Source: Tupaia tana (lineage: Eukaryota; Chordata; Mammalia; Scandentia; Tupaiidae). Taken from it: a DNA stretch of 64,000 bases. The first letter of the stretch is position 1. Every line of letters starts with the position of its first letter. Below are positions 1 through 64,000 of this stretch, in pieces. Made by a program: the position numbers and the translations under genes. The notes beneath the pieces are model-generated. The model worked only from the letters and a program-made list of their open reading frames with translations. It did not search any database and was not told where the DNA came from. The stretch covers positions 186,001 to 250,000 of the forward strand of contig JAKSZU010000189.1 in the NCBI GenBank assembly GCA_026018925.1, written 5' to 3'.

Positions 1-126
1 ACGCTAACTCCAACCATAACAGTTACCAGAAAACTAAAAGTCACCCTAAACTTACTCCCTCAAACTAAGCTCAAACCTAACCTAACCTGAAGCCTAAATC
101 AAACCATACACCTAACCCTAACCCTA
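1..126. repeat. Partial unit at the left edge (type 1)
   Basis: The window opens inside a type 1 unit, at ACGCTAACTCC. It carries the type 1 marks: CATAACAGTTACCAGAAAAC, then TAAAAGTCACC, AAGCTC, and CTAAATCAAACCATACACC before the core. Only the first 42 bases or so of the unit lie outside the window. It is followed by types 2 to 7 in order. Confidence 0.9.
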
Positions 127-294
127 GGCGGACACCTTAACCTCAACCCCAACCCTAACCTGACCCTCACGCGAACTCCAACCGTAACACTGAACCGAAA
201 ACTAACATTAGCCCTAAACTTACTCCCTCAAACTAATTTCAAACCTAACCTAACCTGAAGCCTAACTCAAACCATAGACCTAACCCTAACCCTA
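127..294. repeat. Type 2 unit (CTTAACC start, AATTTC)
   Basis: This unit starts CACCTTAACCTCAACCCC, where other units have TTAAGCTC or TGAAGCTC. It then has TGACCCTCACGCGAACTCC, ACATTAGCCC in place of ACAGTAGCCC, and AATTTC. It ends with the ACTC/ATAGACC form. It nearly always follows type 1, and the pair recurs at about 2,145, 3,830, 5,850, 6,690, 8,530, 14,420, 29,065, 35,290 and 40,670. It was not seen between about 18.6 and 28.9 kb. Many later copies have CACGCTAACTCC in place of CACGCGAACTCC. Confidence 0.88.
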
Positions 295-462
295 GGCGGA
301 CACCTGAAGCTCAACCCCAACCCTAACCTGACCCTCACGCTATCTCCAACCGTAACACTGAACCGAAAACTAACAGTAGCCCTAAACTTACTCCCTCAAA
401 CTAAGTTCAAACCTAACCTAACCTAAAGCCTAAATCAAACCATACACCTAACCCTAACCCTA
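295..462. repeat. Type 3 unit (TGAAG start, CACGCTATCTCC, ATACACC end)
   Basis: This unit starts CACCTGAAGCTCAACCCC, continues TGACCCTCACGCTATCTCC, has AAGTTC, and ends AAATCAAACCATACACC before the core. The AAATC/ATACACC end is shared with type 1 and separates both from the ACTC/ATAGACC types. This copy has CCTAAAGCC where most units have CCTGAAGCC. Copies with the same change lie near 4,131, 36,427, 41,804 and 43,983, a useful mark for tracing block copies. Confidence 0.88.
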
Positions 463-8200: not shown

Positions 8201-10716
8201 CACCTGAAGCTCAACCCCAACCCTAACCTAACCCTGACGCTATCTCCAACCGTAACACTGAACCGAAAACTAACAGTAGCCCTAAACTTACTCCCTCAAA
8301 CTAAGTTCAAACGTAACCTAACCTGAAGCCTAACTCAAACCATAGACCTAACCCTAACCCTAGGCGGAAACCTTAAGCTCAACCCCAACCCTAACCTGGC
8401 CCTGACGCTAACTCCAACCATAACAGTTACCAGAAAACTAAAAGTCACCCTAAACTTACTCCCTCAAACTAAGCTCAAACCTAACCTAACCTGAAGCCTA
8501 AATCAAACCATACACCTAACCCTAACCCTAGGCGGACACCTTAACCTCAACCCCAACCCTAACCTGACCCTCACGCGAACTCCAACCGTAACACTGAACC
8601 GAAAACTAACATTAGCCCTAAACTTACTCCCTCAAACTAATTTCAAACCTAACCTAACCTGAAGCCTAAATCAAACCATAGACCTAACCCTAACCCTAGG
8701 CGGACACCTGAAGCTCAACCCCAACCCTAACCTGACCCTCACGCTATCTCCAACCGTAACACTGAACCGAAAACTAACAGTAGCCCTAAACTTACTCCCT
8801 CAAAATAAGTTCAAACCTAACCTAACCTGAAGCCTAAATCAAACCATACACCTAACCCTAACCCTAGGCGGACACCTTAAGCTCAAGCCCAACCCTAACC
8901 TGACCTTCACGCTAACTCCAACCGTAACACTGAACCGAAAACTAACAGTAGCCATAAACTTACTCCCTCAAACTAAGTTCAAACCTAACCTAACCTGAAG
9001 CCTAACTCAAACCATAGACCTAACCCTAACCCTAGGCGGACACCTGAAGCTCAACCCCAACCCTAACCTAACCCTGACGCTATCTCCAACCGTAACACTG
9101 AACCGAAAACTAACAGTAGCCCTAAACTTACTCCCTCAAACTAACTTCAAACCTAACCTAACCTGAAGCCTAACTCAAACCATAGACATAACCCTAACCC
9201 TAGGCGGACACCTTAAGCTCAACCCCAGTCCTAAAATGGCCCTGACGCTAACTACAACCATAACAGTTACCCGAAAACTAACAGTAGCCCTAAACTTACT
9301 CCCTCAAACTAAGTTCAAACCTAACCTAACCTGAAGCCTAACTCAAACCATAGACCTAACCCTAACCCTAGGCGGACACCTGAAGCTCAACCCCAACCCT
9401 AACCTGACCCTCACGCTATCTCCAACCGTAACACTGAACCGAAAACTAACAGTAGCCCTAAACTTACTCCCTCAAACTAAGTTCAAACCTAACCTAACCT
9501 GAAGCCTAAATCAAACCATACACCTAACCCTAACCCTAGGCGGACACCTTAAGCTCAAGCCCAACCCTAACCTGACCCTCACGCTAACTCCAAACGTAAC
9601 ACTGAACCGAAAACTAACAGTAGCCCTAAACTTACTCCCTCAAACTAAGTTCAAACCTAACCTAACCTGAAGCCTAACTCAAACCATAGACCTAACCCTA
9701 ACCCTAGGCGGACACCTGAAGCTCAACCCCAACCCTAACCTAACCCTGACGCTATCTCCAACCGTAACACTGAACCGAAAACTAACAGTAGCCCTAAACT
9801 TACTCCCTCAAACTAAGTTCAAACGTAACCTAACCTCAAGCCTAACTCAAACCATAGACCTAACCCTAACCCTAGGCGGAAACCTTAAGCTCAACCCCAA
9901 CCCTAACCTGGCCCTGACGCTAACTCCAACCATAACAGTTACCAGAAAACTAAAAGTCACCCTAAACTTACTCCCTCAAACTAAGCTCAAACCTAACCTA
10001 ACCTGAAGCCTAAATCAAACCATACACCTAACCCTAACCCTAGGCGGACACCTTAACCTCAACCCCAACCCTAACCTGACCCTCACGCTAACTCCAACCG
10101 TAACACTGAACCGAAAACTAACAGTAGCCCTAAACTTACTCCCTCAAACTAATTTCAAACCTAACCTAACCTGAAGCCTAAATCAAACCATACACCTAAC
10201 CCTAACCCAGGCGGACACCTTAAGCTCAAGCCCAACCCTAACCTGACCCTCACGCTAACTCCAACCGTAACACTGAACCGAAAACTAACAGTAGCCCTAA
10301 ACTTACTCCCTCAAAACTAACTTCAAACCTAACCTAACCTGAAGCCTAAATCAAACCATACACCTAACCCTAACCCTAGGCGGACACCTTAAGCTCAAGC
10401 CCAACACTAACCTGACCCTCATGCTAACTCCAATCGTAACACTGAACCGAAAAAATAACAGTAGCCCTAAACTTACTCCCTCAAACTAAGTTCAAACCTA
10501 ACCTAACCTGAAGCCTAACTCAAACCATAGACCTAACCCTAACCCAAGGCGGACACCTGAAGCTCAACCCCAACCCTAACCTAACCCTGACGCTATCTCC
10601 AACCGTAACACTGAACCGAAAAACTAACAGTAGCCCTAAACTTACTCCCTCAAACTAACTTCAAACCTAACCTAACCTGAAGCCTAACTCAAACCATAGA
10701 CCTAACCCTAACCCTA
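5300..10716. repeat. Five-unit cycles nested in an 11-unit (1.85-kb) repeat
   Basis: Type 1 blocks near 5,741 and 6,581 are 840 bp apart (5 units). About 5,600-6,400 matches 6,440-7,240, with the shared oddity CTCAAAATAAG at about 6,112 and 6,952. The same oddity returns at about 8,801, and GCTAACTACAACC at 7,398 returns near 9,247, so an 11-unit (about 1,850 bp) repeat is laid over the 5-unit cycle. CCAAACGTAAC near 5,392, 8,078 and 9,591 marks copies of one type 4 variant. The stretch about 7,560-7,640 (GACGATATCTCC, CTAGCAGTAGCC, CCCACAAAC) matches about 3,028-3,095. Confidence 0.75.
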
Positions 10717-10884
10717 GGCGGACACCTTAAGCTCAACCCCAGTCCTAAAATGGCCCTGACGCTAACTCCAACCATAACAGTTACCCGAAAACTAAAAGTC
10801 ACCCTAAACTTACTCCCTCAAACTAAGCTCAAACCTAACCTAACCTGAAGCCTAAATCAAACCATACACCAAACCCTAACCCTA
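10717..10884. repeat. Recombinant unit: type 6 front joined to type 1 back
   Basis: The first half is type 6 (AGTCCTAAAATGGCCC, GTTACCCGAAAAC). The second half is type 1 (TAAAAGTCACCC, AAGCTC, AAATC/ATACACC). The switch lies within the shared AAAACTAA. The same hybrid recurs near 31,590, 43,525, 46,550, 48,890 and 55,610. It is generally followed by ATACACCAAACCC (ATACACCGAACCC near 43,672), and most copies have CCCTAAAACTAGG one unit later (about 11,043, 31,913, 46,869, 49,223 and 55,942). A single exchange followed by copying of the linked block is the simplest explanation. Confidence 0.85.
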
Positions 10885-11821
10885 GGCGGACACCTTAACC
10901 TCAAACCCCAACCCTAACCTGACCCTCACGCTAACTCCAACCGTAACACTGAACCGAAAACTAACATTAGCCCTAAACTTACTCCCTCAAACTAATTTCA
11001 AACCTAACCTAACCTGAAGCCTAACTGAAACCATAGACCTAACCCTAAAACTAGGCGGACACCTGAAGCTCAACCCCAACCCTAACCTGACCCTCACGCT
11101 ATCTCCAACCGTAACACTGAACCGAAAACTAACAGTAGCCCTAAACTTACTCCCTCAAACTAAGTTCAAACCTAACCTAACCTGAAGCCTAAATCAAACC
11201 ATACACCTAACCCTAACCCTAGGCGGACACCTTAAGCTCAAGCCCAACCCTAACCTGACCCTCACGCTAACTCCAACCGTAACACTGAACCGAAAACTAA
11301 CAGTAGCCCTAAACTTACTCCCTCAAACTAAGTTCAAACCTAACCTAACCTGAAGCCTAACTCAAACCATAGACCTAACCCTAACCCTAGGCGGACACCT
11401 GAAGCTCAACCCCAACCCTAACCTAACCCTGACGCTATCTCTAACCGTAACACTGAACCGAAAACTAACAGTAGCCCTAAACTTACTCCCTCAAACTAAC
11501 TTCAAACCTAACCTAACCTGAAGCCTAACTCAAACCATAGACCTAACCCTAACCCTAGGCGGACACCTTAAGCTCAACCCCAGTCCTAAAATGGCCCTGA
11601 CGCTAACTCCAACCATAACAGTTACCCGAAAACTAACGGTAGCCCTAAACTTACTCCCTCAAACTAAGTTCAAACCTAACCTAACCTGAAGCCTAACTCA
11701 AACCATAGACCTAACCCTAACCCTAGGCGGAAACCTGAAGTTCAACCCCAACGCTAACCTCACCCTGACGCTATCTCCAACCGTAACACTGAACCGAAAA
11801 CTAACAGTAGCCCTAAACTTA

Positions 11822-11833
11822 CCTCCACCCCCC
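11822..11833. repeat. 12-base C-rich insertion within a unit
   Basis: Where other units read CTTACTCCCTCAAAC, this one reads CTTA, then CCTCCACCCCCC, then CTCCCTCAAAC. This is 12 extra bases, the largest interruption of the unit that I found in the window. The matching unit at about 32,686 lacks it, so it arose in this copy only. It could be a replication-slippage product in the pyrimidine run or an assembly artefact. Confidence 0.85.
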
Positions 11834-14800
11834 CTCCCTCAAACTAAGTTCAAACGTAACCTAACCTGAAGCCTAACTCAAACCATAGACCTAACCCTAA
11901 CCCTAGGCGGACACCTTAAGCTCAACCCCAACCCTAAAATGGCCCTGACGCTAACTCCAACCATAACAGTTACCAGAAAACTAAAAGTCACCCTAAACTT
12001 ACTCCCTCAAACTAAGCTCAAACCTAACCTAACCTGAAGCCTAACTCAAACCATAGACCTAACCCTAACCCTAGGCGGACACCTTAACCTCAACCCCAAC
12101 CCTAACCTGACCCTCACGCTAACTCCAACCGTAACACTGAACCGAAAACTAACAGTAGCCCTAAACTTACTCCCTCAAACAAATTTCAAACCTAACCTAA
12201 CCTGAAGCCTAAATCAAACCATACACCTAACCCTAACCCTAGGCGGACACCTTAAGCTCAAGCCCAACCCTAATCTGACCCTCACGCTAATTCCAACCGT
12301 AACACTGAACCGAAAACTAACAGTAGCCCTAAACTTACTCCCTCAAATTAAGTTCAAACCTAACATAACCTGAAGCCTAACTCAAACCATAGACCTAACC
12401 CTAACCCTAGGCCGACACCTGAAGCTCAACCCCAACCCTAACCTAACCCTGACGCTATCTCCAACCGTAACACTGAACCGAAAACTAACAGTAGCCCTAA
12501 ACTTACTCCCTCAAACTAACTTCAAACCTAACCTAACCTGAAGCCTAACTCAAACCATAGACCTAACCCTAACCCTAGGCGGACACCTTAAGCTCAACCC
12601 CAGTCCTAAAATGGCCCTGACGCTAACTCCAACCATAACAGTTACCCGAAAACTAACAGTAGCCCTAAACTTACTCCCTCAAACTAAGTTCAAACCTAAC
12701 CTAACCTGAAGCCTAACTCAAACCATAGACCTAACCCTAACCCTAGGCGGACACCTGAAGCTCAACCCCAACGCTAACCTCACCCTGACGCTATCTCCAA
12801 CCGTAACACTGAACCGAAAACTAACAGTAGCCCTAAACTTACTCCCTCAAACTAAGTTCAAACGTAACCTAACCTGAAGCCTAACTCAAACCATAGACCT
12901 AACCCTAACCCTAGGCGGACACCTTAAGCTCAACCCCAACCCTAACCTGGCCCTGACGCTAACTCCAACCATAACAGTTACCAGAAAACTAAAAGTCACC
13001 CTAAACTTACTCCCTCAAACTAAGCTCAAACCTAACCTAACCTGAAGCCTAAATCAAACCATACACCTAACCCTAACCCTAGGCGGACACCTTAACCTCA
13101 ACCCCAACCCTAACCTGACCCTCACGCTAACTCCAACGGTAACACTGAACCGAAAACTAACATTAGCCCTAAACTTACTCCCTCAAACTAATTTCAAACC
13201 TAACCTAACCTGAAGCCTAACTCAAACCATAGACCTAACCCTAACCCTAGGCGGACACCTGAAGCTCAACCCCAACCCTAACCTGACCCTCACGCTATCT
13301 CCAACCGTAACACTGAACCGAAAACTAACAGTAGCCCTAAACTTACTCCCTCAAACTAAGTTCAAACCTAACCTAACCTGAAGCCTAAATCAAACCATAC
13401 ACCTAACCCTAACCCTAGGCAGACACCTTAACCTCGACCCCAACCCTAACCTGACCCTCACGCTAACTCCAACCGTAACACTGAACCGAAAACTAACAGT
13501 AGCCCTAAACTTACTCCCTCAAACTAAGTTCAAACCTAACCTAACCTGAAGCCTAACTCAAACCATAGACCTAACCCTAACCCTAGGCGGACACCTGAAG
13601 CTCAACCCCAACCCTAACCTAACCCTGACGCTATCTCCAACCGTAACACTGAACCGAAAAACTAACAGTAGCCCTAAACTTACTCCCTCAAACTAACTTC
13701 AAACCTAACCTAACCTGAAGCCTAACTCAAACCATAGACCTAACCCTAACCCTAGGCGGACACCTTAAGCTCAAGCCCAACCCTAACCTGACCCTCACGC
13801 TAACTCCAACCGTAACACTGAACCGAAAACTAACAGTAGCCCTAAACTTACTCCCTCAAACTAAGTTCACACCTAACCTAACCTGAAGCCTAACTCAAAC
13901 CATAGACCTAACCCTAACCCTAAGCGGACACCTGAAGCTCAACCCCAACCCTAACCTAACCCTGACGCTATCTCCAACCGTAACACTGAACCACAAACTA
14001 ACAGTAGCCCTAAACTTACTCCCTCAAACTAACTTCAAACCTAACCTAACCTGAAGCCTAACTCAAACCATAGACCTAACCCTAACCCTAGGGGGACACC
14101 TTAAGCTCAACCCCAGTCCTAAAATGGCCCTGACGCTAACTCCAACCATAACAGTTACCCGAAAACTAACAGTAGCTCTAAACTTACTCCCTCAAACTAA
14201 GTTCAAACCTAACCTAACCTGAAGCCTAACTCAAACCATAGACCTAACCCTAACCCTAGGCGGACACCTGAAGCTCAACCCCAACCCTAACCTGGCCCTG
14301 ATGCTAACTCCAACCATAACAGTTACCAGAAAACTAAAAGTCACCCTAAACTTACTCCCTCAAACTAAGCTCAAACCTAACCTAACCTGAAGCCTAAATC
14401 AAACCATACACCTAACCCTAACCCTAGGCGGACACCTTAACCTCAACCCCAACCCTAACCTGACCCTCACGCGAACTCCAACCGTAACACTGAACCGAAA
14501 ACTAACATTAGCCCTAAACTTACTCCCTCAAACTAATTTCAAACCTAACCTAACCTGAAGCCTAACTCAAACCATAGACCTAACCCCTAACCCTAGGCGG
14601 ACACCTGAAGCTCAACCCCAACCCTAACCTGACCCTCACGCTATCTCCAACCGTAACACTGAACCGAAAACTAACAGTAGCCCTAAACTTACTCCCTCAA
14701 ACTAAGTTCAAACCTAACCTAACCTGAATCCTAAATCAAACCATACACCTAACCCTAACCCTAGGCGGACACCTTAAGCTCAAGCCCAACCCTAACCTGA

Positions 14801-31900: not shown

Positions 31901-32427
31901 CATAGACCTAACCCTAAAACTAGGCGGACACCTGAAGCTCAACCCCAACCCTAACCTGACCCTCACGCTATCTCCAACCGTAACACTGAACCGAAAACTA
32001 ACAGTAGCCCTAAACTTACTCCCTCAAACTAAGTTCAAACCTAACCTAACCTGAAGCCTAAATCAAACCATACACCTAACCCTAACCCTAGGCGGACACC
32101 TTAAGCTCAAGCCCAACCCTAACCTGACCCTCACGCTAACTCCAACCGTAACACTGAATCGAAAACTAACAGTAGCCCTAAACTTACTCCCTCAAACTAA
32201 GTTCAAACCTAACCTAACCTGAAGCCTAACTCAAACCATAGACCTAACCCTAACCCTAGGCGGACACCTGAAGCTCAACCCCAACCCTAACCTAACCCTG
32301 ACGCTATCTCTAACCGTAACACTGAACCGAAAACTAACAGTAGCCCTAAACTTACTCCCTCAAACTAACTTCAAACCTAACCTAACCTGAAGCCTAACTC
32401 AAACCATAGACCTAACCCTAACCCTAG
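28920..32427. repeat. Mixed type 1-7 block between B domain and 32-unit repeat
   Basis: Type 1 order resumes abruptly at about 28,920 with the CTGATGC form of type 1, then types 2, 3 and 4. Near 29,577 there is a jump to a type 7 unit with AACCTTAACAC, also seen near 37,021, 42,400 and 44,582. A type 1' unit follows at about 29,760, then a normal 3-4-5-6-7-1 order. Units near 31,200-31,560 contain two type 5 units in a row. The hybrid unit at about 31,590 starts the copy of the 10.7-18.4 kb block. One-base insertions are frequent at about 28,238-29,345. Confidence 0.72.
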
Positions 32428-47774: not shown

Positions 47775-50700
47775 GTAACACTGAACCGAAAACTAACAGT
47801 AGCCCTAAACTTACTCCCTCAAACTAAGTTCAAACCTAACCTAACCTGAAGCCTAACTCAAACCATAGACCTAACCCTAACCCTAGGCGGACACCTGAAG
47901 CTCAACCCCAACCCTAACCTAACCCTGACGCTATCTCCAACCGTAACACTGAACCGAAAACTAACAGTAGCCCTAAACTTACTCCCTCAAACTACGTTCA
48001 AACGTAACCTAACCTGAAGCCTAACTCAAACCATAGACCTAACCCTAACCCTAGGCGGACACCTTAAGCTCAACCCCAACCCTAACCTGGCCCTGACGCT
48101 AACTCCAACCATAACAGTTACCAGAAAACTAAAAGTCACCCTAAACTTACTCCCTCAAACTAAGCTCAAACCTAACCTAACCTGAAGCCTAAATCAAACC
48201 ATACACCTAACCCTAACCCTAGGCGGACACCTTAACCTCAACCCCAACCCTAACCTGACCCTCACGCTAACTCCAACCGTAACACTGAACCGAAAACTAA
48301 CATTAGCCCTAAACTTACTCCCTCAAACTAATTTCAAACCTAACCTAACCTGAAGCCTAACTCAAACCATAGACCTAACCCTAACCCTAGGCGGACACCT
48401 GAAGCTCAACCCCAACCCTAACCTGACCCTCACGCTATCTCCAACCGTAACACTGAACCGAAAACTAACAGTAGCCCTAAACTTACTCCCTCAAACTAAG
48501 TTCAAACCTAACCTAACTTGAAGCCTAAATCAAACCATACACCTAACCCTAACCCTAGGCGGACACCTTAAGCTCAAGCCCAACCCTAACCTGACCCTCA
48601 TGCTAACTCCAACCGTAACACTGAACCGAAAACTAACAGTAGCCCTAAACTTACTCCCTCAAACTAAGTTCAAACCTAACCTAACCTGAAGCCTAACTCA
48701 AACCATAGACCTAACCCTAACCCTAGGCGGACACCTGAAGCTCAACCCCAACCCTAACCTAACCCTGACGCTATCTCCAACCGTAACACTGAACCGAAAA
48801 CTAACAGTAGCCCTAAACTTACTCCCTCAAACTAACTTCAAACCTAACCTAACCTGAAGCCTAACTCAAACCATAGACCTAACCCTAACCCTAGGCGGAC
48901 ACCTTAAGCTCAACCCCAGTCCTAAAATGGCCCTGACGCTAACTCCAACCATAACAGTTACCCGAAAACTAAAAGTCACCCTAAACTTACTCCCTCAAAC
49001 TAAGCTCAAACCTAACCTAACCTGAAGCCTAAATCAAACCATACACCAAACCCTAACCCTAGGCGGACACCTTAACCTCAACCCCAACCCTAACCTGACC
49101 CTCACGCTAACTCCATCCGTAACACTGAACCGAAAACTAACATTAGCCCTAAACTTACTCCCTCAAACTAATTTCAAACCTAACCTAACCTGAAGCCTAA
49201 CTCAAACCATAGACCTAACCCTAAAACTAGGCGGACACCTGAAGCTCAACGCCAACCCTAACCTGACCCTCACGCTATCTCCAACCGTAACACTGAACCG
49301 AAAACTAACAGTAGCCCTAAACTTACTCCCTCAAACTAAGTTCAAACCTAACCTAACCTGAAGCCTAAATCAAACCATACACCTAACCCTAACCCTAGGC
49401 GGACACCTTAAGCTCAAGCCCCAACCCTAACCTGACCCTCACGCTAACTCCAACCGTAACACTGAACCGAAAACTAACAGTAGCCCTAAACTTACTCCCT
49501 CAAACTAAGTTCAAACCTAACCTAACCTGAAGCCTAACTCAAACCATAGACCTAACCCTAACCCTAGGCGGACACCTGAAGCTCAACCCCAACCCTAACC
49601 TAACCCTGACGCTATCTCTAACCGTAACACTGAACCGAAAACTAACAGTAGCCCTAAACTTACTCCCTCAAACTAACTTCAAACCTAACCTAACCTGAAG
49701 CCTAACTCAAACCATAGACCTAACCCTAACCCTAGGCGGACACCTTAAGCTCAACCCCAGTCCTAAAATGGCCCTGACGCTAACTCCAACCATAACAGTT
49801 ACCCGAAAACTAACGGTAGCCCTAAACTTACTCCCTCAAACTAAGTTCAAACCTAACCTAACCTGAAGCCTAACTCAAACCATAGACCTAACCCTAACCC
49901 TAGGCGGAAACCTGAAGTTCAACCCCAACGCTAACCTCACCCTGACGCTATCTCCAACCGTAACACTGAACCGAAAACTAACAGTAGCACTAAACTTACT
50001 CCCTCAAACTACGTTCAAACGTAACCTAACCTGAAGCCTAACTCAAACCATAGACCTAACCCTAACCCTAGGCGGACACCTTAAGCTCAACCCCAACCCT
50101 AAAATGGCCCTGACGCTAACTCCAACCATAACAGTTACCAGAAAACTAAAAGTCACCCTAAACTTACTCCCTCAAACTGAGCTCAAACCTAACCTAACCT
50201 GAAGCTTAAATCAAACCATACACCTAACCCTAACCCTAGGCGGACACCTTAACCTCAACCCCAACCCTAACCTGACCCTCACGCTAACTCCAACCGTAAC
50301 ACTGAACCGAAAACTAACAGTAGCCCTAAACTTACTCCCTCAAACAAATTTCAAACCTAACCTAACCTGAAGCCTAAATCAAACCATACACCTAACCCTA
50401 TCCCTAGGCGGACACCTTAAGCTCAAGCCCAACCCTAATCTGACCCTCACGCTTAACTCCAACCGTAACACTGAACCGAAAACTAACAGTAGCCCTAAAC
50501 TTACTCCCTCAAACTAAGTTCAAACCTAACATAACCTGAAGCCTAACTCAAACCATAGACCTAACCCTAACCCTAGGCGGACACCTGAAGTTCAACCCCA
50601 ACCCTAACCTAACCCTGACGCTATCTCCAACCGTAACACTGAACCGAAAACTAACAGTAGCCCTAAACTTACTCCCTCAAACTAACTTCAAACCTAACCT

Positions 50701-53700
50701 AACCTGAAGCCTAACTCAAACCATAGACCTAACCCTAACCCTAGGCGGACACCTTAAGCTCAACCCCAGTCCTAAAATGGCCCTGACGCTAACTCCAACC
50801 ATAACAGTTACCCGAAAACTAACAGTAGCCCTAAACTTACTCCCTCAAACTAAGTTCAAACCTAACCTAACCTGAAGCCTAACTCAAACCATAGACCTAA
50901 CCCTAACCCTAGGCGGACACCTGAAGCTCAACCCCAACGCTAACCTCACCCTGACGCTATCTCCAACCGTAACACTGAACCGAAAACTAACAGTAGCCCT
51001 AAACTTACTCCCTCAAACTAAGTTCAAACGTAACCTAACCTGAAGCCTAACTCAAACCATAGACCTAACCCTAACCCTAGGCGGACACCTTAAGCTCAAC
51101 CCCAACCCTAACCTGGCCCTGACGCTAACTCCAACCATAACAGTTACCAGAAAACTAAAAGTCACCCTAAACTTACTCCCTCAAACTAAGCTCAAACCTA
51201 ACCTAACCTGAAGCCTAAATCAAACCATACACCTAACCCTAACCCTAGGCGGACACCTTAACCTCAACCCCAACCCTAACCTGACCCTCACGCTAACTCC
51301 AACCGTAACACTGAACCGAAAACTAACATTAGCCCTAAACTTACTCCCTCAAACTAATTTCAAACCTAACCTAACCTGAAGCCTAACTCAAACCATAGAC
51401 CTAACCCTAACCCTAGGCGGACACCTGAAGCTCAACCCCAACCCTAACCTGACCCTCACGCTATCTCCAACCGTAACACTGAACCGAAAACTAACAGTAG
51501 CCCTAAACTTACTCCCTCAAACTAAGTTCAAACCTAACCTAACCTGAAGCCTAAATCAAACCATACACCTAACCCTAACCCTAGGCAGACACCTTAACCT
51601 CAACCCCAACCCTAACCTGACCCTCACGCTAACTCCAACCGTAACACTGAACCGAAAACTAACAGTAGCCCTAAACTTACTCCCTCAAACTAAGTTCAAA
51701 CCTAACCTAACCTGAAGCCTAACTCAAACCATAGACCTAACCCTAACCCTAGGCGGACACCTGAAGCTCAACCCCAACCCTAACCTAACCCTGACGCTAT
51801 CTCCAACCGTAACACTGAACCGAAAACTAACAGTAGCCCTAAACTTACTCCCTCAAACTAACTTCAAACCTAACCTAACCTGAAGCCTAACTCAAACCAT
51901 AGACCTAACCCTAACCCTAGGCGGACACCTTAAGCTCAACCCCAGTCCTAAAATGGCCCTGACGCTAACTCCAACCATAACAGTTACCCGAAAACTAACA
52001 GTAGCCCTAAACTTACTCCCTCAAACTAAGTTCAAACCTAACCTAACCTGAAGCCTAACTCAAACCATAGACCTAACCCTAACCCTAGGCGGAAACCTGA
52101 AGTTCAACCCCAACGCTAACCTCACCCTGACGCTATCTCCAACCGTAACACTGAACCGAAAACTAACAGTAGCCCTAAACTTACTCCCTCCAACTAAGTT
52201 CAAACGTAACCTAACCTGAAGCCTAACTCAAACCACAGACCTAACCCTAACACTAGGCGGACACCTTAAGCTCAACCCCAACCCTAAAATGGCCCTGACG
52301 CTAACTCCAACCATAACAGTTACCAGAAAACTAAAAGTCACCCTAAACTTACTCCCTCAAACTAAGCTCAAACCTAACCTAACCTGAAGCCTAAATCAAA
52401 CCATACACCTAACCCTAACCCTAGGCGGACACCTTAACCTCAACCCCAACCCTAACCTGACCCTCACGCTATCTCCAACCGTAACACTGAACCGAAAACT
52501 AACAGTAGCCCTAAACTTACTCCCTCAAACTAATTTCAAACCTAACCTAACCTGAAGCCTAAATCAAACCATACACCTAACCCTAACCCTGGGCGGACAC
52601 CTTAAGCTCAAGCCCAACCCTAATCTGACCCTCACGCTAACTCCAACCGTAACACTGAACCGAAAACTAACAGTAGCCCTAAAGTTACTCCCTCAAACTA
52701 AGTTCAAACCTAACCTAACCTGAAGGCTAACTCAAACCATAGACCTAACCCTAACCCTAGGCGGACACCTGAAGCTCAACCCCAACCCTAACCTAACCCT
52801 GACGCTATCTCCAACCGTAACACTGAACCGAAAACTAACAGTAGCCCTAAACTTACTCCCTCAAACTAACTTCAAACCTAACCTAACCTGAAGCCTAACT
52901 CAAACCATAGACCTAACCCTAACCCTAGGCGGACACCTTAAGCTCAACCCCAGTCCTAAAATGGCCCTGACGCTAACTCCAACCATAACAGTTACCCGAA
53001 AAGTAACAGTAGCCCTAAACTTACTCCCTCAAACTAAGTTCAAACCTAACCTAACCTGAAGCCTAACTCAAACCATAGACCTAACACTAACCCTAGGCGG
53101 ACACCTGAAGCTCAACCCCAACGCTAACCTAACCCTGACGCTATCTCCAACCGTAACACTGAACCGAAAACTAACAGTAGCCCTAAACTTACTCCCTCAA
53201 ACTAAGTTCAAACGTAACCTAACCTGAAGCCTAACTCAAACCATAGACCTAACCCTAACCCTAGGCGGACACCTTAAGCTCAACCCCAACCCTAACCTGG
53301 CCCTGACGCTAACTCCAACCATAACAGTTACCAGAAAACTAAAAGTCACCCTAAACTTACTCCCTCAAACTAAGCTCAAACCTAACCTAACCTGAAGCCT
53401 AAATCAAACCATACACCTAACCCTAACCCTAGGCGGACACCTTAACCTCAACCCCAACCCTAACCTGACCCTCACGCTAACTCCAACCGTAACACTGAAC
53501 CGAAAACTAACATTAGCCCTAAATTTACTCCCTCAAACTAATTTCAAACTAACCTAACCTGAAGCCTAACTCAAACCATAGACCTAACCCTAACCCTAGG
53601 CGGACACCTGAAGCTCAACCCCAACCCAAACCTGACCCTCACGCTATCTCCAACCGTAACACTGAACCGAAAACTAACAGTAGCCCTAAACTTACTCCCT

Positions 53701-54495
53701 CAAACTAAGTTCAAACCTAACCTAACCTGAAGCCTAACTCAAACCATAGACCTAACCCTAACCCTAGGCGGACACCTTAAGCTCAACCCCAAACCTAACC
53801 TGGCCCTGACGCTAACTCCAACCATAACAGTTACCCGAAAACTAACAGTCGCCCTAAACTTACTCCCTCAAACTAAGCTCAAACCTAACCTAACCTGAAG
53901 CCTAACTCATACCATAGACCTAACCCTAACCCTAGGCGGACACCTTAAGCTCAACCCCAGTCCTGAAATGGCCCTGACGCTAACTCCAACCATAACAGTT
54001 ACCCGAAAACTAACAGTAGCCCTAAACTTACTCCCCAAACTAAGTTCAAACCTAACCTAACCTGAAGCCTAACTCAAACCATAGACCTAACCTAACCCTA
54101 GGCGGACACCTGAAGCTCAACCCCAACCCTAACCTAACCCTGACGCTATCTCCAACCGTAACACTGAACCGAAAACTAACAGTAGCCCTAAACTTACTCC
54201 CTCAAACTAACTTCAAACCTAACCTAACCTGAAGCCTAACTCAAACCATAGACCTAACCCTAACCCTAGGCGGACACCTTAAGCTCAACCCCAGTCCTAA
54301 AATGGCCCTGACGCTAACTCCAACCATAACAGTTACCCGAAAACTAACAGTACCCCTAAACTTACTCCCTCAAACTAACTTCAAACCTAACCTAACCTGA
54401 AGCCTAACTCAAACCATAGACCTAACCCTAACGCTAGGCGGACACCTTAAGCTCAACACCAACCCTAACCTGACCCTCACGCTATCTCCAACCGT
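47775..54495. repeat. 40-unit higher-order repeat, copy 1 (6.72 kb)
   Basis: Sequence from about 47,775 to 54,710 matches about 54,495-61,430 at an offset of 6,720-6,725 bp (40 units). Private variants shared by both copies include CTACGTTCAAACG (47,991 and 54,711), CTAACTTGAAGCC (48,514 and 55,234), CTCCATCCGTAAC (49,112 and 55,837), GAAGCTTAAATC (50,201 and 56,922), ACCACAGACC (52,232 and 58,952), TAAAGTTACTCC with TGAAGGCTAAC (about 52,681 and 59,401) and GAAAAGTAACAG (52,998 and 59,718). The last kilobase (about 53.75-54.7 kb) is B-type (ACAGTCGCC, CCTGAAATGG, CAACACCAACCC) and joins A-type sequence at 54,711. Confidence 0.88.
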
Positions 54496-57400
54496 AACAC
54501 TGAACCGAAAACTAACAGTAGCACTAAACTTACTCCCTCAAACTAAGTTCAAACCTAACCTAACCTGAAGCCTAACTCAAACCATAGACCTAACCCTAAC
54601 CCTAGGCGGACACCTGAAGCTCAACCCCAACCCTAACCTAACCCTGACGCTATCTCCAACCGTAACACTGAACCGAAAACTAACAGTAGCCCTAAACTTA
54701 CTCCCTCAAACTACGTTCAAACGTAACCTAACCTGAAGCCTAACTCAAACCATAGACCTAACCCTAACCCTAGGCGGACACCTTAAGCTCAACCCCAACC
54801 CTAACCTGGCCCTGACGCTAACTCCAACCATAACAGTTACCAGAAAACTAAAAGTCACCCTAAACTTACTCCCTCAAACTAAGCTCTAACCTAACCTAAC
54901 CTGAAGCCTAAATCAAACCATACACCTAACCCTAACCCTAGGCGGACACCTTAACCTCAACCCCAACCCTAACCTGACCCTCACGCTAACTCCAACCGTA
55001 ACACTGAACCGAAAACTAACATTAGCCCTAAACTTACTCCCTCAAACTAATTTCAAACCTAACCTAACCTGAAGCCTAACTCAAACCATAGACCTAACCC
55101 TAACCCTAGGCGGACACCTGAAGCTCAACCCCAACCCTAACCTGACCCTCACGCTATCTCCAACCGTAACACTGAACCGAAAACTAACAGTAGCCCTAAA
55201 CTTACTCCCTCAAACTAAGTTCAAACCTAACCTAACTTGAAGCCTAAATCAAACCATACACCTAACCCTAACCCTAGGCGGACACCTTAAGCTCAAGCCC
55301 AACCCTAACCTGACCCTCATGCTAACTCCAACCGTAACACTGAACCGAAAACTAACAGTAGCCCTAAACTTACTCCCTCAACTAAGTTCAAACCTAACCT
55401 AACCTGAAGCCTAACTCAAACCATAGACCTAACCCTAACCCTAGGGCGGACACCTGAAGCTCAACCCCAACCCTAACCTAACCTGACGCTATCTCCAACC
55501 GGTAACACTGAACGCGAAAACTAACAGTAGCCCTAAACTTACTCCCTCAAACTAACTTCAAACCTAACCTAACCTGAAGCCTAACTCAAACCATAGACCT
55601 AACCCTAACCCTAGGCGGACACCTTAAGCTCAACCCCAGTCGCTAAAATGGGCCCTGACGCTAACTCCAACCATAACAGTTACCCGAAAACTAAAAGTCA
55701 CCCTAAACTTACTCCCTCAAACTAAGCTCAAACCTAACCTAACCTGAAGCCTAAATCAAACCATACACCAAACCCTAACCTAGGCGGACACCCTTAACCT
55801 CAACCCCAACCCTAACCTGACCTCACACGCTAACTCCATCCGTAACACTGAACCGAAAACTAACATTAGCCTAAACTTACTCCCTCAAACTAATTTCAAA
55901 CCTAACCTAACCTGAAGCCTAACTCAAACCATAGACCTAACCCTAAAACTAGGCGGACACCTGAAGCTCAACGCCAACCCTAACCTGACCCTCACGCTAT
56001 CTCCAACCGTAACACTGAACCGAAAACTAACAGTAGCCCTAAACTTACTCCCTCAAACTAAGTTCAAACCTAACCTAACCTGAAGCCTAAATCAAACCAT
56101 ACACCTAACCCTAACCCTAGGCGGACACCTTAAGCTCAAGCCCAACCCTAACCTGACCCTCACGCTAACTCCAACCGTAACACTGAACCGAAAACTAACA
56201 GTAGCCCTAAACTTACTCCCTCAAACTAAGTTCAAACCTAACCTAACCTGAAGCCTAACTCAAACCATAGACCTAACCCTAACCCTAGGCGGACACCTGA
56301 AGCTCAACCCCAACCCTAACCTAACCCTGACGCTATCTCTAACCGTAACACTGAACCGAAAACTAACAGTAGCCCTAAACTTACTCCCTCAAACTAACTT
56401 CAAACCTAACCTAACCTGAAGCCTAACTCAAACCATAGACCTAACCCTAACCCTAGGCGGACACCTTAAGCTCAACCCCAGTCCTAAAATGGCCCTGACG
56501 CTAACTCCAACCATAACAGTTACCCGAAAACTAACGGTAGCCCTAAACTTACTCCCTCAAACTAAGTTCAAACCTAACCTAACCTGAAGCCTAACTCAAA
56601 CCATAGACCTAACCCTAACCCTAGGCGGAAACCTGAAGTTCAACCCCAACGCTAACCTCACCCTGACGCTATCTCCAACCGTAACACTGAACCGAAAACT
56701 AACAGTAGCACTAAACTTACTCCCTCAAACTACGTTCAAACGTAACCTAACCTGAAGCCTAACTCAAACCATAGACCTAACCCTAACCCTAGGCGGACAC
56801 CTTAAGCTCAACCCCAACCCTAAAATGGCCCTGACGCTAACTCCAACCATAACAGTTACCAGAAAACTAAAAGTCACCCTAAACTTACTCCCTCAAACTG
56901 AGCTCAAACCTAACCTAACCTGAAGCTTAAATCAAACCATACACCTAACCCTAACCCTAGGCGGACACCTTAACCTCAACCCCAACCCTAACCTGACCCT
57001 CACGCTAACTCCAACCGTAACACTGAACCGAAAACTAACAGTAGCCCTAAACTTACTCCCTCAAACAAATTTCAAACCTAACCTAACCTGAAGCCTAAAT
57101 CAAACCATACACCTAACCCTATCCCTAGGCGGACACCTTAAGCTCAAGCCCAACCCTAATCTGACCCTCACGCTAACTCCAACCGTAACACTGAACCGAA
57201 AACTAACAGTAGCCCTAAACTTACTCCCTCAAACTAAGTTCAAACCTAACATAACCTGAAGCCTAACTCAAACCATAGACCTAACCCTAACCCTAGGCGG
57301 ACACCTGAAGTTCAACCCCAACCCTAACCTAACCCTGACGCTATCTCCAACCGTAACACTGAACCGAAAACTAACAGTAGCCCTAAACTTACTCCCTCAA

Positions 57401-60400
57401 ACTAACTTCAAACCTAACCTAACCTGAAGCCTAACTCAAACCATAGACCTAACCCTAACCCTAGGCGGACACCTTAAGCTCAACCCCAGTCCTAAAATGG
57501 CCCTGACGCTAACTCCAACCATAACAGTTACCCGAAAACTAACAGTAGCCCTAAACTTACTCCCTCAAACTAAGTTCAAACCTAACCTAACCTGAAGCCT
57601 AACTCAAACCATAGACCTAACCCTAACCCTAGGCGGACACCTGAAGCTCAACCCCAACGCTAACCTCACCCTGACGCTATCTCCAACCGTAACACTGAAC
57701 CGAAAACTAACAGTAGCCCTAAACTTACTCCCTCAAACTAAGTTCAAACGTAACCTAACCTGAAGCCTAACTCAAACCATAGACCTAACCCTAACCCTAG
57801 GCGGACACCTTAAGCTCAACCCCAACCCTAACCTGGCCCTGACGCTAACTCCAACCATAACAGTTACCAGAAAACTAAAAGTCACCCTAAACTTACTCCC
57901 TCAAACTAAGCTCAAACCTAACCTAACCTGAAGCCTAAATCAAACCATACACCTAACCCTAACCCTAGGCGGACACCTTAACCTCAACCCCAACCCTAAC
58001 CTGACCCTCACGCTAACTCCAACCGTAACACTGAACCGAAAACTAACATTAGCCCTAAACTTACTCCCTCAAACTAATTTCAAACCTAACCTAACCTGAA
58101 GCCTAACTCAAACCATAGACCTAACCCTAACCCTAGGCGGACACCTGAAGCTCAACCCCAACCCTAACCTGACCCTCACGCTATCTCCAACCGTAACACT
58201 GAACCGAAAACTAACAGTAGCCCTAAACTTACTCCCTCAAACTAAGTTCAAACCTAACCTAACCTGAAGCCTAAATCAAACCATACACCTAACCCTAACC
58301 CTAGGCAGACACCTTAACCTCAACCCCAACCCTAACCTGACCCTCACGCTAACTCCAACCGTAACACTGAACCGAAAACTAACAGTAGCCCTAAACTTAC
58401 TCCCTCAAACTAAGTTCAAACCTAACCTAACCTGAAGCCTAACTCAAACCATAGACCTAACCCTAACCCTAGGCGGACACCTGAAGCTCAACCCCAACCC
58501 TAACCTAACCCTGACGCTATCTCCAACCGTAACACTGAACCGAAAACTAACAGTAGCCCTAAACTTACTCCCTCAAACTAACTTCAAACCTAACCTAACC
58601 TGAAGCCTAACTCAAACCATAGACCTAACCCTAACCCTAGGCGGACACCTTAAGCTCAACCCCAGTCCTAAAATGGCCCTGACGCTAACTCCAACCATAA
58701 CAGTTACCCGAAAACTAACAGTAGCCCTAAACTTACTCCCTCAAACTAAGTTCAAACCTAACCTAACCTGAAGCCTAACTCAAACCATAGACCTAACCCT
58801 AACCCTAGGCGGAAACCTGAAGTTCAACCCCAACGCTAACCTCACCCTGACGCTATCTCCAACCGTAACACTGAACCGAAAACTAACAGTAGCCCTAAAC
58901 TTACTCCCTCCAACTAAGTTCAAACGTAACCTAACCTGAAGCCTAACTCAAACCACAGACCTAACCCTAACACTAGGCGGACACCTTAAGCTCAACCCCA
59001 ACCCTAAAATGGCCCTGACGCTAACTCCAACCATAACAGTTACCAGAAAACTAAAAGTCACCCTAAACTTACTCCCTCAAACTAAGCTCAAACCTAACCT
59101 AACCTGAAGCCTAAATCAAACCATACACCTAACCCTAACCCTAGGCGGACACCTTAACCTCAACCCCAACCCTAACCTGACCCTCACGCTATCTCCAACC
59201 GTAACACTGAACCGAAAACTAACAGTAGCCCTAAACTTACTCCCTCAAACTAATTTCAAACCTAACCTAACCTGAAGCCTAAATCAAACCATACACCTAA
59301 CCCTAACCCTAGGCGGACACCTTAAGCTCAAGCCCAACCCTAATCTGACCCTCACGCTAACTCCAACCGTAACACTGAACCGAAAACTAACAGTAGCCCT
59401 AAAGTTACTCCCTCAAACTAAGTTCAAACCTAACCTAACCTGAAGGCTAACTCAAACCATAGACCTAACCCTAACCCTAGGCGGACACCTGAAGCTCAAC
59501 CCCAACCCTAACCTAACCCTGACGCTATCTCCAACCGTAACACTGAACCGAAAACTAACAGTAGCCCTAAACTTACTCCCTCAAACTAACTTCAAACCTA
59601 ACCTAACCTGAAGCCTAACTCAAACCATAGACCTAACCCTAACCCTAGGCGGACACCTTAAGCTCAACCCCAGTCCTAAAATGGCCCTGACGCTAACTCC
59701 AACCATAACAGTTACCCGAAAAGTAACAGTAGCCCTAAACTTACTCCCTCAAACTAAGTTCAAACCTAACCTAACCTGAAGCCTAACTCAAACCATAGAC
59801 CTAACACTAACCCTAGGCGGACACCTGAAGCTCAACCCCAACGCTAACCTAACCCTGACGCTATCTCCAACCGTAACACTGAACCGAAAACTAACAGTAG
59901 CCCTAAACTTACTCCCTCAAACTAAGTTCAAACGTAACCTAACCTGAAGCCTAACTCAAACCATAGACCTAACCCTAACCCTAGGCGGACACCTTAAGCT
60001 CAACCCCAACCCTAACCTGGCCCTGACGCTAACTCCAACCATAACAGTTACCAGAAAACTAAAAGTCACCCTAAACTTACTCCCTCAAACTAAGCTCAAA
60101 CCTAACCTAACCTGAAGCCTAAATCAAACCATACACCTAACCCTAACCCTAGGCGGACACCTTAACCTCAACCCCAACCCTAACCTGACCCTCACGCTAA
60201 CTCCAACCGTAACACTGAACCGAAAACTAACATTAGCCCTAAATTTACTCCCTCAAACTAATTTCAAAACTAACCTAACCTGAAGCCTAACTCAAACCAT
60301 AGACCTAACCCTAACCCTAGGCGGACACCTGAAGCTCAACCCCAACCCAAACCTGACCCTCACGCTATCTCCAACCGTAACACTGAACCGAAAACTAACA

Positions 60401-61430
60401 GTAGCCCTAAACTTACTCCCTCAAACTAAGTTCAAACCTAACCTAACCTGAAGCCTAACTCAAACCATAGACCTAACCCTAACCCTAGGCGGACACCTTA
60501 AGCTCAACCCCAAACCTAACCTGGCCCTGACGCTAACTCCAACCATAACAGTTACCCGAAAACTAACAGTCGCCCTAAACTTACTCCCTCAAACTAAGCT
60601 CAAACCTAACCTAACCTGAAGCCTAACTCATACCATAGACCTAACCCTAACCCTAGGCGGACACCTTAAGCTCAACCCCAGTCCTGAAATGGCCCTGACG
60701 CTAACTCCAACCATAACAGTTACCCGAAAACTAACAGTAGCCCTAAACTTACTCCCCCAAACTAAGTTCAAACCTAACCTAACCTGAAGCCTAACTCAAA
60801 CCATAGACCTAACCCTAACCCTAGGCGGACACCTGAAGCTCAACCCCAACCCTAACCTAACCCTGACGCTATCTCCAACCGTAACACTGAACCGAAAACT
60901 AACAGTAGCCCTAAACTTACTCCCTCAAACTAACTTCAAACCTAACCTAACCTGAAGCCTAACTCAAACCATAGACCTAACCCTAACCCTAGGCGGACAC
61001 CTTAAGCTCAACCCCAGTCCTAAAATGGCCCTGACGCTAACTCCAACCATAACAGTTACCCGAAAACTAACAGTACCCCTAAACTTACTCCCTCAAACTA
61101 ACTTCAAACCTAACCTAACCTGAAGCCTAACTCAAACCATAGACCTAACCCTAACGCTAGGCGGACACCTTAAGCTCAACACCAACCCTAACCTGACCCT
61201 CACGCTATCTCCAACCGTAACACTGAACCGAAAACTAACAGTAGCCCTAAACTTACTCCCTCAAACTAAGTTCAAACCTAACCTAACCTGAAGCCTAACT
61301 CAAACCATAGACCTAACCCTAACCCTAGGCGGACACCTGAAGCTCAACCCCAACCCTAACCTAACCCTGACGTTATCTCCAACCGTAACACTGAACCGAA
61401 AACTAACAGTAGCCCTAAACTTACTCCCTC
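54496..61430. repeat. 40-unit higher-order repeat, copy 2 (6.72 kb)
   Basis: This is the second tandem copy. Type 1 or hybrid marks follow the same spacing as copy 1: 5, 7, 6, 7 and 6 units from about 54,841. Its B-type tail (about 60.48-61.43 kb) shows AACGCTAGGCGG with CAACACCAACCC near 61,154-61,185, as in copy 1 near 54,432. Beyond about 61,430 the match fails: this copy continues into TTTAAACCTAACCTACCCAG, while copy 1 goes to CTACGTTCAAACG. The interval 55,380-55,870 has a dense cluster of one-base indels, treated as a separate observation. Confidence 0.87.
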
Positions 61431-64000
61431 AAACTAAGTTTAAACCTAACCTACCCAGAAGCCTAAATCAAACCATACACCTAACCCTAACCCTAGGCGG
61501 ACACCTTAAGCTCAAGCCCAACCCTAACCTGACCCTCACGCTAACTCCAACCGTAACACTGAACCGAAAACTAACAGTAGCCCTAAACTTACTCCCTCAA
61601 ACTAAGTTCAAACCTAACCTAACCTGAAGCCTAAATCAAACCATACACCTAACCCTAACCCTAGGCGGACACCTGAAGCTCAACCCCAACCCTAACCTGA
61701 CCCTGACGCTATCTCCAACCGTAACACTGAACTGAAAACTAACAGTAGCCCTAAACTTACTCCCTCAAACTAAGTTCAAACCTAACCTAACCTGAAGCCT
61801 AACTCAAACCATAGACCTAACCCTAACCCTAGGCGGACACCTGAAGCTCAACCCCAACCTTAACCTGACCCTCACGCTCTCTCCAACCGTAACACTGAAC
61901 CGAAAACTAACAGTAGCCCTAAACTTACACCCTCAAGCTAAGTTCAAACCTAACCTAACCTGAAGCCTAACTCAAACCATAGACCTAACCCTAACCCTAG
62001 GCGGACACCTTAAGCTCAACCACAATCCTAAAATGGCCCTGACGCTAACTCCAACAATAACAGTTACCCGAAAACTAACAGTAGCCCTAAACTTACTCCC
62101 TCAAACTAAGTTCAAACCTAACCTAACCTGAAGCCTAAATCAAACCATACACCTAACCCCAACCCTAGGCGGACACCTTAAGCTCAACCCCAACCCTAAC
62201 CTGACCCTCACGTTAAATCCAACCGTAACACTGAACTGAAAACTAACAGTAGCCCTAAACTTACTCCCTCAAACTAAGTTCAAACCTAACCTAACCTGAA
62301 GCCTAACTCAAACCATAGACCTAAACCTAACCCCCAGGAGGACACCTGAAGCTCAACCCCAACGCTAACCTGACCCTGACTCTATCTCCAACAGTAACAC
62401 TGAAACGAAAACTAACAGTAGCCCTAAACTTACTCCCTCAAACTAAGTTCAAACCTAACCTAACCTGAAGCCTAACTCAAACCATAGACCTAACCCTAAC
62501 CCTAGGCGGACACCTTAAGCTCAACCCCAAACCTAACCTGGCCCTGACGCTAACTCCAACCATAACAGTTACCCGAAAACTAACAGTCGCCCTAAACTTA
62601 CTCCCTCAAACTAAGTTCAAACCTAACCTAACCTGAAGCCTAACTCAAACCATAGACCTAACCCTAACCCTAGGCGGACACCTTAAGCTCAACCCCAGTC
62701 CTGAAATGGCCCTGACGCTAACTCCAACCATAACAGTTACCCGAAAACTAACAGTAGCCCTAAACTTACTCCCTCAAACTAAGTTCAAACCTAACCTAAC
62801 CTGAAGCCTAACTCAAACCATAGACCTAACCCTAACCCTAGGCGGACACCTGAAGCTCAACCCCAACCCTAACCTAACCCCGACGCTATCTCCAACCGTA
62901 ACACTGAACCGAAAACTAACAGTAGCCCTAAACTTACTCCCTCAAACTAACTTCAAACCTAACCTAACCTGAAGCCTAACTCAAACCATAGACCTAACCC
63001 TAACCCTAGGCGGACACCTTAAGCTCAACCCCAGTCCTAAAATGGCCCTGACGCTAACTCCAACCATAACAGTTACCCGAAAACTAACAGTAGCCCTAAA
63101 CTTACTCCCTCAAACTAACTTCAAACCTAACCTAACCTGAAGCCTAACTCAAACCATAGACCTAACCCTAACCCTAGGCGGACACCTTAAGCTCAACACC
63201 AACCCTAACCTGACCCTCACGCTATCTCCAACCGTAACACTGAACCGAAAACTAACAGTAGCCCTAAACTTACTCCCTCAAACTAAGTTCAAACCTAACC
63301 TAACCTGAAGCCTAACTCAAACCATAGACCTAACCCTAACCCTAGGCGGACACCTGAAGCTCAACCCCAACCCTAACCTAACCCTGACGCTATCTCCAAC
63401 CGTAACACTGAACCGAAAACTAACAGTAGCACTAAACTTACTCCCTCAAACTAAGTTTAAACCTAACCTACCCAGAAACCTAAATCAAACCATACACCTA
63501 ACCCTAACCCTAGGCGGACACCTTAAGCTCAAGCCCAACCCTAACCTGACCCTCACGCTAACTCCAACCGTAACACTGAACCGAAAACTAACAGTAGCCC
63601 TAAACTTACTCCCTCAAACTAAGTTCAAACCTAACCTAACCTGAAGCCTAAATCAAACCATACACCTAACCCTAACCCTAGGCGGACACCTGAAGCTCAA
63701 CCCCAACCCTAACCTGACCCTGACGCTATCTCCAACCGTAACACTGAACCGAAAACTAACAGTAGCCCTAAACTTACTCCCTCAAACTAAGTTCAAACCT
63801 AACCTAACCTGAAGCCTAACTCAAACCATAGACCTAACCCTAACCCTAGGCGGACACCTGAAGCTCAACCCCAACCCTAACTTGACCCTCACGCTCTCTC
63901 CAACCGTAACACTGAACCGAAAACTAACAGTAGCCCTAAACTTACACCCTCAAGCTAAGTTCAAACCTAACCTAATCTGAAGCCTAACTCAAACCATAGA
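61431..64000. repeat. B-type block at the right edge (12-unit repeat)
   Basis: Together with the end of the previous repeat, about 60,780-62,700 matches about 21,620-23,540 at an offset of 39,160 bp. Examples are TACACCCTCAAGCTAAG at 61,926 (TGACACCCTC at 22,765), CACAATCCTAAAATGG at 62,021 and 22,861, and CCCAGGAGG at 62,334 and 23,172. After about 62,700 the offset grows by one unit, because this copy has a type 6 unit (about 63,025) that the upstream copy lacks. The TTTAAACCTAACCTACCCAG mark repeats at 61,439 and 63,457, a 12-unit (about 2,018 bp) period. The window ends 152 bases into a unit that began at 63,849. Confidence 0.83.

What the first reader, a model, noticed from the sequence alone, without database searches (positions are those of the whole stretch)
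1..64000. A nucleosome-sized satellite that carries a telomere-like core in almost every unit
Seen: a 168-bp unit repeated about 380 times, each with CCTAACCCTAACCCTAGG plus degenerate CCTAA and CCCCAA runs. Known: many centromeric satellites have units near 150-180 bp, and telomere-like motifs occur in some subtelomeric and pericentromeric satellites. Inference: the unit may have grown from mutated telomeric repeats and then been amplified as a longer satellite. I do not recognise this family by name, so it may be undescribed.
Basis: partly seen in the sequence, partly recalled or inferred. Interest (0 to 1): 0.75.

Follow-up and report, generated by a model that had tools for sequence, protein, structure and literature searches.

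The report
Tree-shrew satellite made of decayed telomeres
Tens of millions of bases of this mammalian genome are copies of one 168-base repeat that is, from end to end, 28 mutated copies of the chromosome-tip sequence, and where its place could be seen it lies mostly near chromosome ends.

Summary
The window is one uninterrupted 168-bp tandem array, 380 units, 95.8% mean identity to consensus. The core occurs exactly 305 times.
All 168 bp align to (CCCTAA)28 at 72% identity with only two insertions and two deletions. Of 3,252 possible 5-, 6- and 7-mers, the vertebrate telomere hexamer fits best.
The satellite fills about 47-76 Mb (1.6-2.6%) of a 2.95-Gb mammalian assembly (estimated). It occurs, in telomere orientation, on the three scaffolds known to begin or end in telomere repeats. 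On chromosome-scale scaffolds 42 of 45 listed matches lie within 1.5 Mb of an end. At one end a degenerate TTAGGG tract precedes a satellite match.
Best reading: a subtelomeric satellite born from the decayed inner part of a telomere, amplified by segmental duplication and homogenised between chromosome ends. The core and its telomere-protein sites are not conserved more than the rest; no CENP-B box.
The host is probably a tree shrew (recalled globins, abundant tRNA-type SINE). No published description was found, but repeat libraries could not be searched.

The parts
1..64000 (+). 168-bp satellite array, C-rich (CCCTAA-like) strand, 380 complete units in head-to-tail order
1..168 (+). first complete unit in the consensus register used here
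111..128 (+). first copy of the 18-bp core CCTAACCCTAACCCTAGG; 305 exact copies in the window; holds two overlapping YAACCCTAR sites
48936..54646 (+). 34-unit segment, 99.8% identical to the segment 40 units downstream (55658-61369): segmental duplication
55658..61369 (+). copy of the 34-unit segment
32133..37681 (+). 33-unit segment duplicated at a distance of 32 units (copy 37513-43059)
10590..14974 (+). 26-unit segment duplicated at a distance of 124 units (copy 31461-35832)
11768..11947 (+). only 180-bp unit, with a 12-base insertion, mostly C, at unit position about 50-53

Best explanation
This is a subtelomeric satellite of a mammal, probably a tree shrew. SHOWN: the whole 168-bp unit fits 28 hexamers of decayed telomere repeat; it is present in roughly 276,000-450,000 units; it lies in telomere orientation on the three scaffolds known here to start or end in telomere repeats, and near ends of six chromosome-scale scaffolds; three contigs share one consensus (one site differs in one of them); inside the window, blocks of up to 34 units are duplicated almost without change. 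INFERRED: telomere repeats on the inner side of a chromosome end escaped telomerase renewal and decayed (the tract in L037 looks like that stage). A stretch of 28 hexamers was then caught in unequal exchange or another amplification and became the repeat unit. Segmental duplication lengthened the arrays, and exchange between clustered chromosome ends keeps them alike. The arrays most likely act as sequence-independent terminal heterochromatin, a buffer between genes and telomere. About 2.5 consensus TRF1/TRF2 half-sites per unit survive as a by-product; I see no extra conservation of them.
For: Whole-unit fit to the hexamer: ungapped 0.637 in one phase against 0.377 +/- 0.020 in 2,000 shuffles and 0.394 +/- 0.028, max 0.50, in 300 shuffles meant to keep dinucleotides; gapped 72.4% with 2 insertions and 2 deletions, score 72 against max -10 in 800 genomic 168-mers and max 20 in 400 shuffles; CCCTAA first of 3,252 words. 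Position: the three scaffolds known to have (CCCTAA)5 runs at a terminus (C641, C875, C1097) all carry the satellite in the same orientation. 42 of 45 listed matches on scaffolds over 40 Mb are within 1.5 Mb of an end: C297, C309, C420, C531, C753, C1086. Junction: near the end of C531 a degenerate TTAGGG tract of about 350 bp (90% gapped identity to the hexamer) lies about 0.3 kb before a satellite match. Homogenisation: C296 and C33 consensus identical, C297 one difference. Duplication: 272 of 380 units lie in runs of 5 or more units repeated at >=98.8%; 0 such runs in 20 order shuffles.
Against: Two terminal blocks (start of C297, 0.86-1.05 Mb of C309) point opposite to a telomere at that end, and C1086 changes orientation within its last 1.5 Mb; these may be real inversions or scaffolding errors. 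Three listed matches are interstitial: two at 92.67-92.68 Mb of the 199-Mb C420 and one at 187.23 Mb of the 228-Mb C864, so the family is not purely terminal. 237 of 282 listed matches lie on other scaffolds whose place is unknown. C420 (left end) and C531 rest on one match each. The positions come from rare-variant patterns, one list cut at 100 of 266. No chromatin, FISH or expression data.
Confidence: 0.8

Rival explanations
1. It is the centromeric or pericentromeric satellite of this species, and the terminal positions are short arms of acrocentric chromosomes.
For: Unit length in the usual centromeric range; local dimeric and multi-unit higher-order structure in C296; interstitial matches on C420 and C864. 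PMC2386441 (passages read) gives 2n = 62 for Tupaia belangeri; with many acrocentrics (recalled) a terminal scaffold position could be centromeric.
Against: The three scaffolds known to end in telomere repeats carry it in telomere orientation, on C1097 68 kb from the last base. No CENP-B box in the window. A match lies beside a subtelomere-type repeat and a decayed telomere tract at C531. On acrocentric short arms both readings can be true at once.
Confidence: 0.25
2. The unit is under selection as a telomere-protein platform: TRF1/TRF2 bind the retained core in each unit and extend a shelterin-like domain inwards.
For: Three YAACCCTAR matches per consensus unit, 951 in the window, all on one strand; the genome holds far more copies of the core (232,657) than of (CCCTAA)4 (1,815), though the assembly probably lacks most true telomeres.
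Against: Core divergence is not exceptional: 27 of 167 rotations of the mask are as low or lower, and 49 of 167 for all TRF-site columns; the median column divergence is even higher inside TRF sites (0.022) than outside (0.015), and other 18-bp stretches, around unit positions 46 and 79, are more conserved.
Confidence: 0.1
3. Chance: a C- and A-rich repeat with accidental telomere-like words and no descent from telomeres.
For: C + A make up 73% of the strand.
Against: Shuffles of the same composition reach at most a score of 20 against the observed 72, the fit spans the whole unit, and the exact vertebrate hexamer is first of 3,252 words.
Confidence: 0.02
4. Chromosome fusions left interstitial telomere blocks that were then amplified.
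For: Interstitial matches on C420 and C864; [quoted passage not shown]
Against: 42 of 45 placed matches are terminal, and the satellite lies on the scaffolds known to end in telomere repeats.
Confidence: 0.1

Closest known systems
Heterochromatic interstitial telomeric sequences (het-ITS, e.g. Chinese hamster)
   Same: Very large satellite amounts of telomere-derived sequence in a mammal (review PMC6410037, passages read)
   Different: het-ITS are blocks of telomeric repeats; here (CCCTAA)4 occurs only 1,815 times genome-wide and the repeating unit is 168 bp with internally fixed mutations
Guinea pig and kangaroo rat alpha satellites (TTAGGG)
   Same: Abundant mammalian satellite of telomeric sequence (PMC9498494, passages read)
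   Different: Those repeat the hexamer itself; here the hexamers are frozen into a complex nucleosome-length unit
Degenerate subtelomeric TTAGGG tracts (human subtelomeres)
   Same: Decayed telomere repeats on the inner side of chromosome ends (PMC8122249 and PMC6410037, passages read); L037 shows such a tract here
   Different: Those passages describe tracts, not a satellite with a longer unit
Telomeric repeats amplified in Solanum centromeres
   Same: Telomeric repeats amplified within chromosomes (PMC5615363, one sentence read)
   Different: Plant repeat, centromeric position; unit structure not seen by me
[quoted passage not shown] 2017)
   Same: Probably the same order of mammals; by my count the core matches 16 of 18 bases of a (CCCTAA)3 probe
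   Different: Cytogenetic signal only; paper not held, title seen in reference lists; no sequence link shown
Whalebone-whale 'heavy' satellite (recalled, no call)
   Same: Terminal chromosome location with telomere-like subrepeats, as I recall

Membership tests
Subtelomeric satellite | Tandem arrays next to telomeres on many chromosome ends | tested here: met
   The three scaffolds known to have terminal telomere repeats carry it, and matches lie near ends of C297, C309, C420, C531, C753, C1086; 7 of 22 scaffolds over 40 Mb that I looked up have a listed match; the sampling was sparse. C245 undecided
Subtelomeric satellite | Heterochromatin marks (H3K9me3, C-band) | not testable with these tools
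   No chromatin or cytogenetic data
Telomere-derived satellite | Unit descends from the telomere hexamer | tested here: met
het-ITS / TTAGGG alpha satellite | Arrays of near-perfect (TTAGGG)n | tested here: not met
   No (CCCTAA)3 in the window; 1,815 (CCCTAA)4 in 2.95 Gb
Alpha-type centromeric satellite | CENP-B box | tested here: not met
   0 matches on either strand of the window, best 5 of 9 fixed positions in the consensus (motif recalled); not all centromeric satellites have one
Alpha-type centromeric satellite | Centromere position, CENP-A | tested here: inconclusive
   Interstitial matches on C420 and C864 of unknown nature; CENP-A not testable
A named satellite in Dfam or Repbase | Close match to a library consensus | not testable with these tools
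   No eukaryotic repeat library on hand; ten paper searches listed none that I recognised as this repeat
Host: Scandentia | Globins, abundant tRNA SINE, no carnivore SINE | tested here: inconclusive
   Alpha and beta globin exons resemble tree-shrew chains as I recall them; a word of an abundant tRNA-type SINE occurs 228,417 times, in line with 21% Tu-SINEs in PMC4408798; a carnivore SINE 22-mer occurs 0 times. No named reference was compared

The most novel reading that the evidence does not exclude
The satellite is a second, telomerase-independent chromosome-end domain: its hundreds of thousands of retained TRF1/TRF2 half-sites, which may outnumber those of the telomeres, recruit or titrate shelterin, and let chromosome ends be maintained or repaired by recombination between satellite arrays.
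Probability: 0.08. Interest if true: 0.85.

Novelty: new variant of a known kind. Interest (0 to 1): 0.5.

Why it matters
Most satellites have no traceable origin. Here the likely source (the telomere hexamer), an intermediate-looking state (decayed tract at C531) and the product (a 168-bp unit with higher-order structure) can all be seen in one genome. It offers a testable case of how a nucleosome-length satellite is born. It could also explain interstitial telomere FISH signals in tree shrews, and would confound telomere-length assays that use telomere probes in such animals.

Tried and rejected
Pangolin as host was my first guess (mtDNA control-region repeats, carnivore-like alpha globin); dropped when the globin exons were read in full. 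Carnivora was rejected because a carnivore SINE 22-mer has 0 hits. Selection on the core was tested and not found. CENP-B box: none. G-quadruplex motif (four tracts of three or more) on the G strand of the window: 0. A genome-wide alternating dimer was considered: alternation at unit position 138 is strong in C296 (window: 295 switches of 379, 184.8 expected) but weak or absent in C33 and C297, so it is local. An Rfam search of two loci to name the SINE found nothing. A paper search for a 168-bp telomere-like satellite gave 0; one for tree shrew with satellite DNA gave 14 papers, of which I looked at passages of five (PMC9693754, PMC8470041, PMC5799724, PMC7227013, PMC6410037); none of the passages shown described this repeat. 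Naming the species through published microsatellite primers failed: the main text refers to a supplement for them.
Full report
Observation. The window is a single tandem array. TRF reports period 168 over 1-64000. My cyclic alignment gives 380 complete units, 306 of exactly 168 bp, with mean identity 0.958 to the consensus. The 18-bp core is exact 305 times. The five further pieces that I read of the 363,883-bp contig C296, including its first 9 kb and last 9.9 kb, are satellite too.

The unit is telomeric throughout. In one fixed phase the 168-bp consensus agrees with (CCCTAA)28 at 63.7% of positions, against 37.7 +/- 2.0% for the best phase of 2,000 shuffles. A second shuffle, meant to keep dinucleotides (segment swaps, not a formally exact method), gave 39.4 +/- 2.8%, maximum 50%, in 300 trials. 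With gaps allowed, the identity is 72.4% with two inserted and two missing bases, which cancel, so the length stays 28 x 6. The score is 72; 800 genomic 168-mers (400 places, both strands) reach at most -10, and 400 shuffles at most 20. I scored every distinct 5-, 6- and 7-mer, rotations merged: CCCTAA is first of 3,252; the next is CCTAAA at 60. Internal similarity at offsets 78 and 90 (both multiples of 6) is 57%, against 50% at 72, 84 and 96, so there may be an older internal duplication, but the excess is small.

Amount. The core 18-mer occurs 232,657 times in the 2.948-Gb assembly and a 20-mer from another part of the unit 234,302 times. With the exact-match rates of the window (305 and 322 in 380 units) this means about 276,000-290,000 units, 46-49 Mb. 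With the lower rate seen in C33 (61 cores, in 118 units) it would be about 450,000 units, 76 Mb. By contrast (CCCTAA)4 occurs 1,815 times. Perfect telomere repeat is therefore almost absent from the assembly, and the satellite cannot be plain telomere repeat.

Position. Full maps were not available, because lists stop at 100 places. I used four satellite patterns with two negated positions, which hit rare variants: 266 matches with 100 listed, 86, 2 and 94, in all 282 listed of 448. Of 22 scaffolds longer than 40 Mb whose lengths I looked up, seven have a listed match, 45 matches in all. Terminal, 42 matches: C297 (first 10 kb read as satellite; five matches up to 245 kb); C309 (seven, 0.86-1.05 Mb of 268 Mb); C420 (one, 0.27 Mb of 199 Mb); C531 (one, 28 kb from its end); C753 (five, within its last 0.8 Mb); C1086 (23, within its last 1.5 Mb). 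Interstitial, three matches: C420 at 92.67-92.68 Mb (two) and C864 at 187.23 Mb (one). No listed match elsewhere is not evidence of absence.

Link to telomeres. Runs of at least five perfect hexamers, followed by a base other than C, occur at 43 places in the whole assembly. Three scaffolds have such runs at a terminus: C641 (bases 146-515), C875 (121-207) and C1097 (its last 400 bases; lengths). All three carry the satellite in the same orientation as the telomere: first listed match at 98 kb on C641 and 252 kb on C875, and 68-73 kb from the end of C1097. On the chromosome-scale scaffolds C420 (left end), C531 and C753 agree in orientation with a telomere at that end; C297 and C309 are opposite; C1086 changes orientation.

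A possible intermediate. The 501 bases read near the end of C531 hold, in order, sequence resembling by eye the 215-bp repeat of C508 (L036), then about 350 bp of degenerate TTAGGG (28 perfect TTAGGG among variants such as TTTAGGG, TTAGGGG and TTATGG; 90% gapped identity to the hexamer). A single satellite match begins 281 bp further on. The bases in between could not be read. This is the arrangement expected if the satellite arose from a decayed telomere tract, but it is one locus with one match, and it does not show direction in time.

Turnover. The consensus of C296 (660 units) equals that of C33 (118 units) and differs from that of C297 (59 units) at one site; 529 of 837 aligned units are distinct. 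Inside the window 34 runs of five or more units recur at >=98.8% at distances up to 199 units, the longest being 34 units at a distance of 40 units (99.84%), 33 at 32, and 26 at 124. 272 of 380 units take part; shuffling the order of units gave no such run in 20 trials. Segmental duplication of multi-kilobase blocks is thus shown; exchange between chromosomes is inferred from the shared consensus.

Function. The consensus has three matches to the TRF half-site YAACCCTAR (motif recalled), 951 in the window, all on one strand. If TRF binding were selected, these columns should vary less. They do not stand out: 49 of 167 rotations are at least as conserved, and 27 of 167 for the 18-bp core; the median divergence is 0.022 inside and 0.015 outside the sites. 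There is no CENP-B box and no four-tract G-quadruplex motif in the window. I therefore favour a sequence-independent role as terminal heterochromatin; PMC5615363 (passages read) lists such buffering roles for subtelomeric repeats.

Host. It is a mammal, with alpha and beta globin genes and a 16.8-kb mtDNA. The alpha and beta globin exons resemble tree-shrew globins as I recall them. A word of an abundant tRNA-type SINE (my reading of copies) occurs 228,417 times, which fits the 21% Tu-SINE content given for Tupaia in PMC4408798 (passages read). The carnivore SINE word is absent. This is a probable, not a proven, assignment.

Novelty. Telomere-derived satellites are known (passages). A satellite whose whole nucleosome-length unit is decayed telomere repeat in register, at this scale and with higher-order structure, I did not find in ten searches of the open-access library, of which I read passages, not whole papers. 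Subscription papers and repeat libraries were not searchable.

Noticed in passing
L036 (C508:10050-10650): A second, different tandem repeat of about 215 bp, each unit with a perfect (CCCTAA)5-7 block beside TTTGACC runs; a related-looking piece lies near the end of C531 (L037). Looks like a separate subtelomeric repeat.
   Followed up: partly
G000 C221:427813-532644 (not fetched): (CCCTAA)5 runs, seen as overlapping (CCCTAA)4 hits, recur at ten places; 8 of the 9 spacings are within 6 bp of a multiple of 168 (my arithmetic), as if some satellite units there held a longer perfect telomere run without change of length.
   Followed up: no
G000 C464, C453, C1086: Satellite orientation flips inside scaffolds (e.g. 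C464 between 1.76 and 2.07 Mb; C1086 between 95.10 and 95.41 Mb): inverted arrays or scaffold joins.
   Followed up: no
L026, L031, L032: The first 60 bases of three unplaced contigs share sequence (TAAAGGTAGAATTTCTCTCTGGCT in L026 and L031; L032 shares a longer stretch with L026 in reverse): an unidentified repeat.
   Followed up: no
L035, mtDNA contig, control region: Long run of ACGTAC-type tandem repeats in the mitochondrial control region.
   Followed up: no
L025 (C1:1-10000): GC-rich contig start (57% GC) with long near-identical internal repeats (4.2 kb at 98.5%) and no copy of the satellite core.
   Followed up: no
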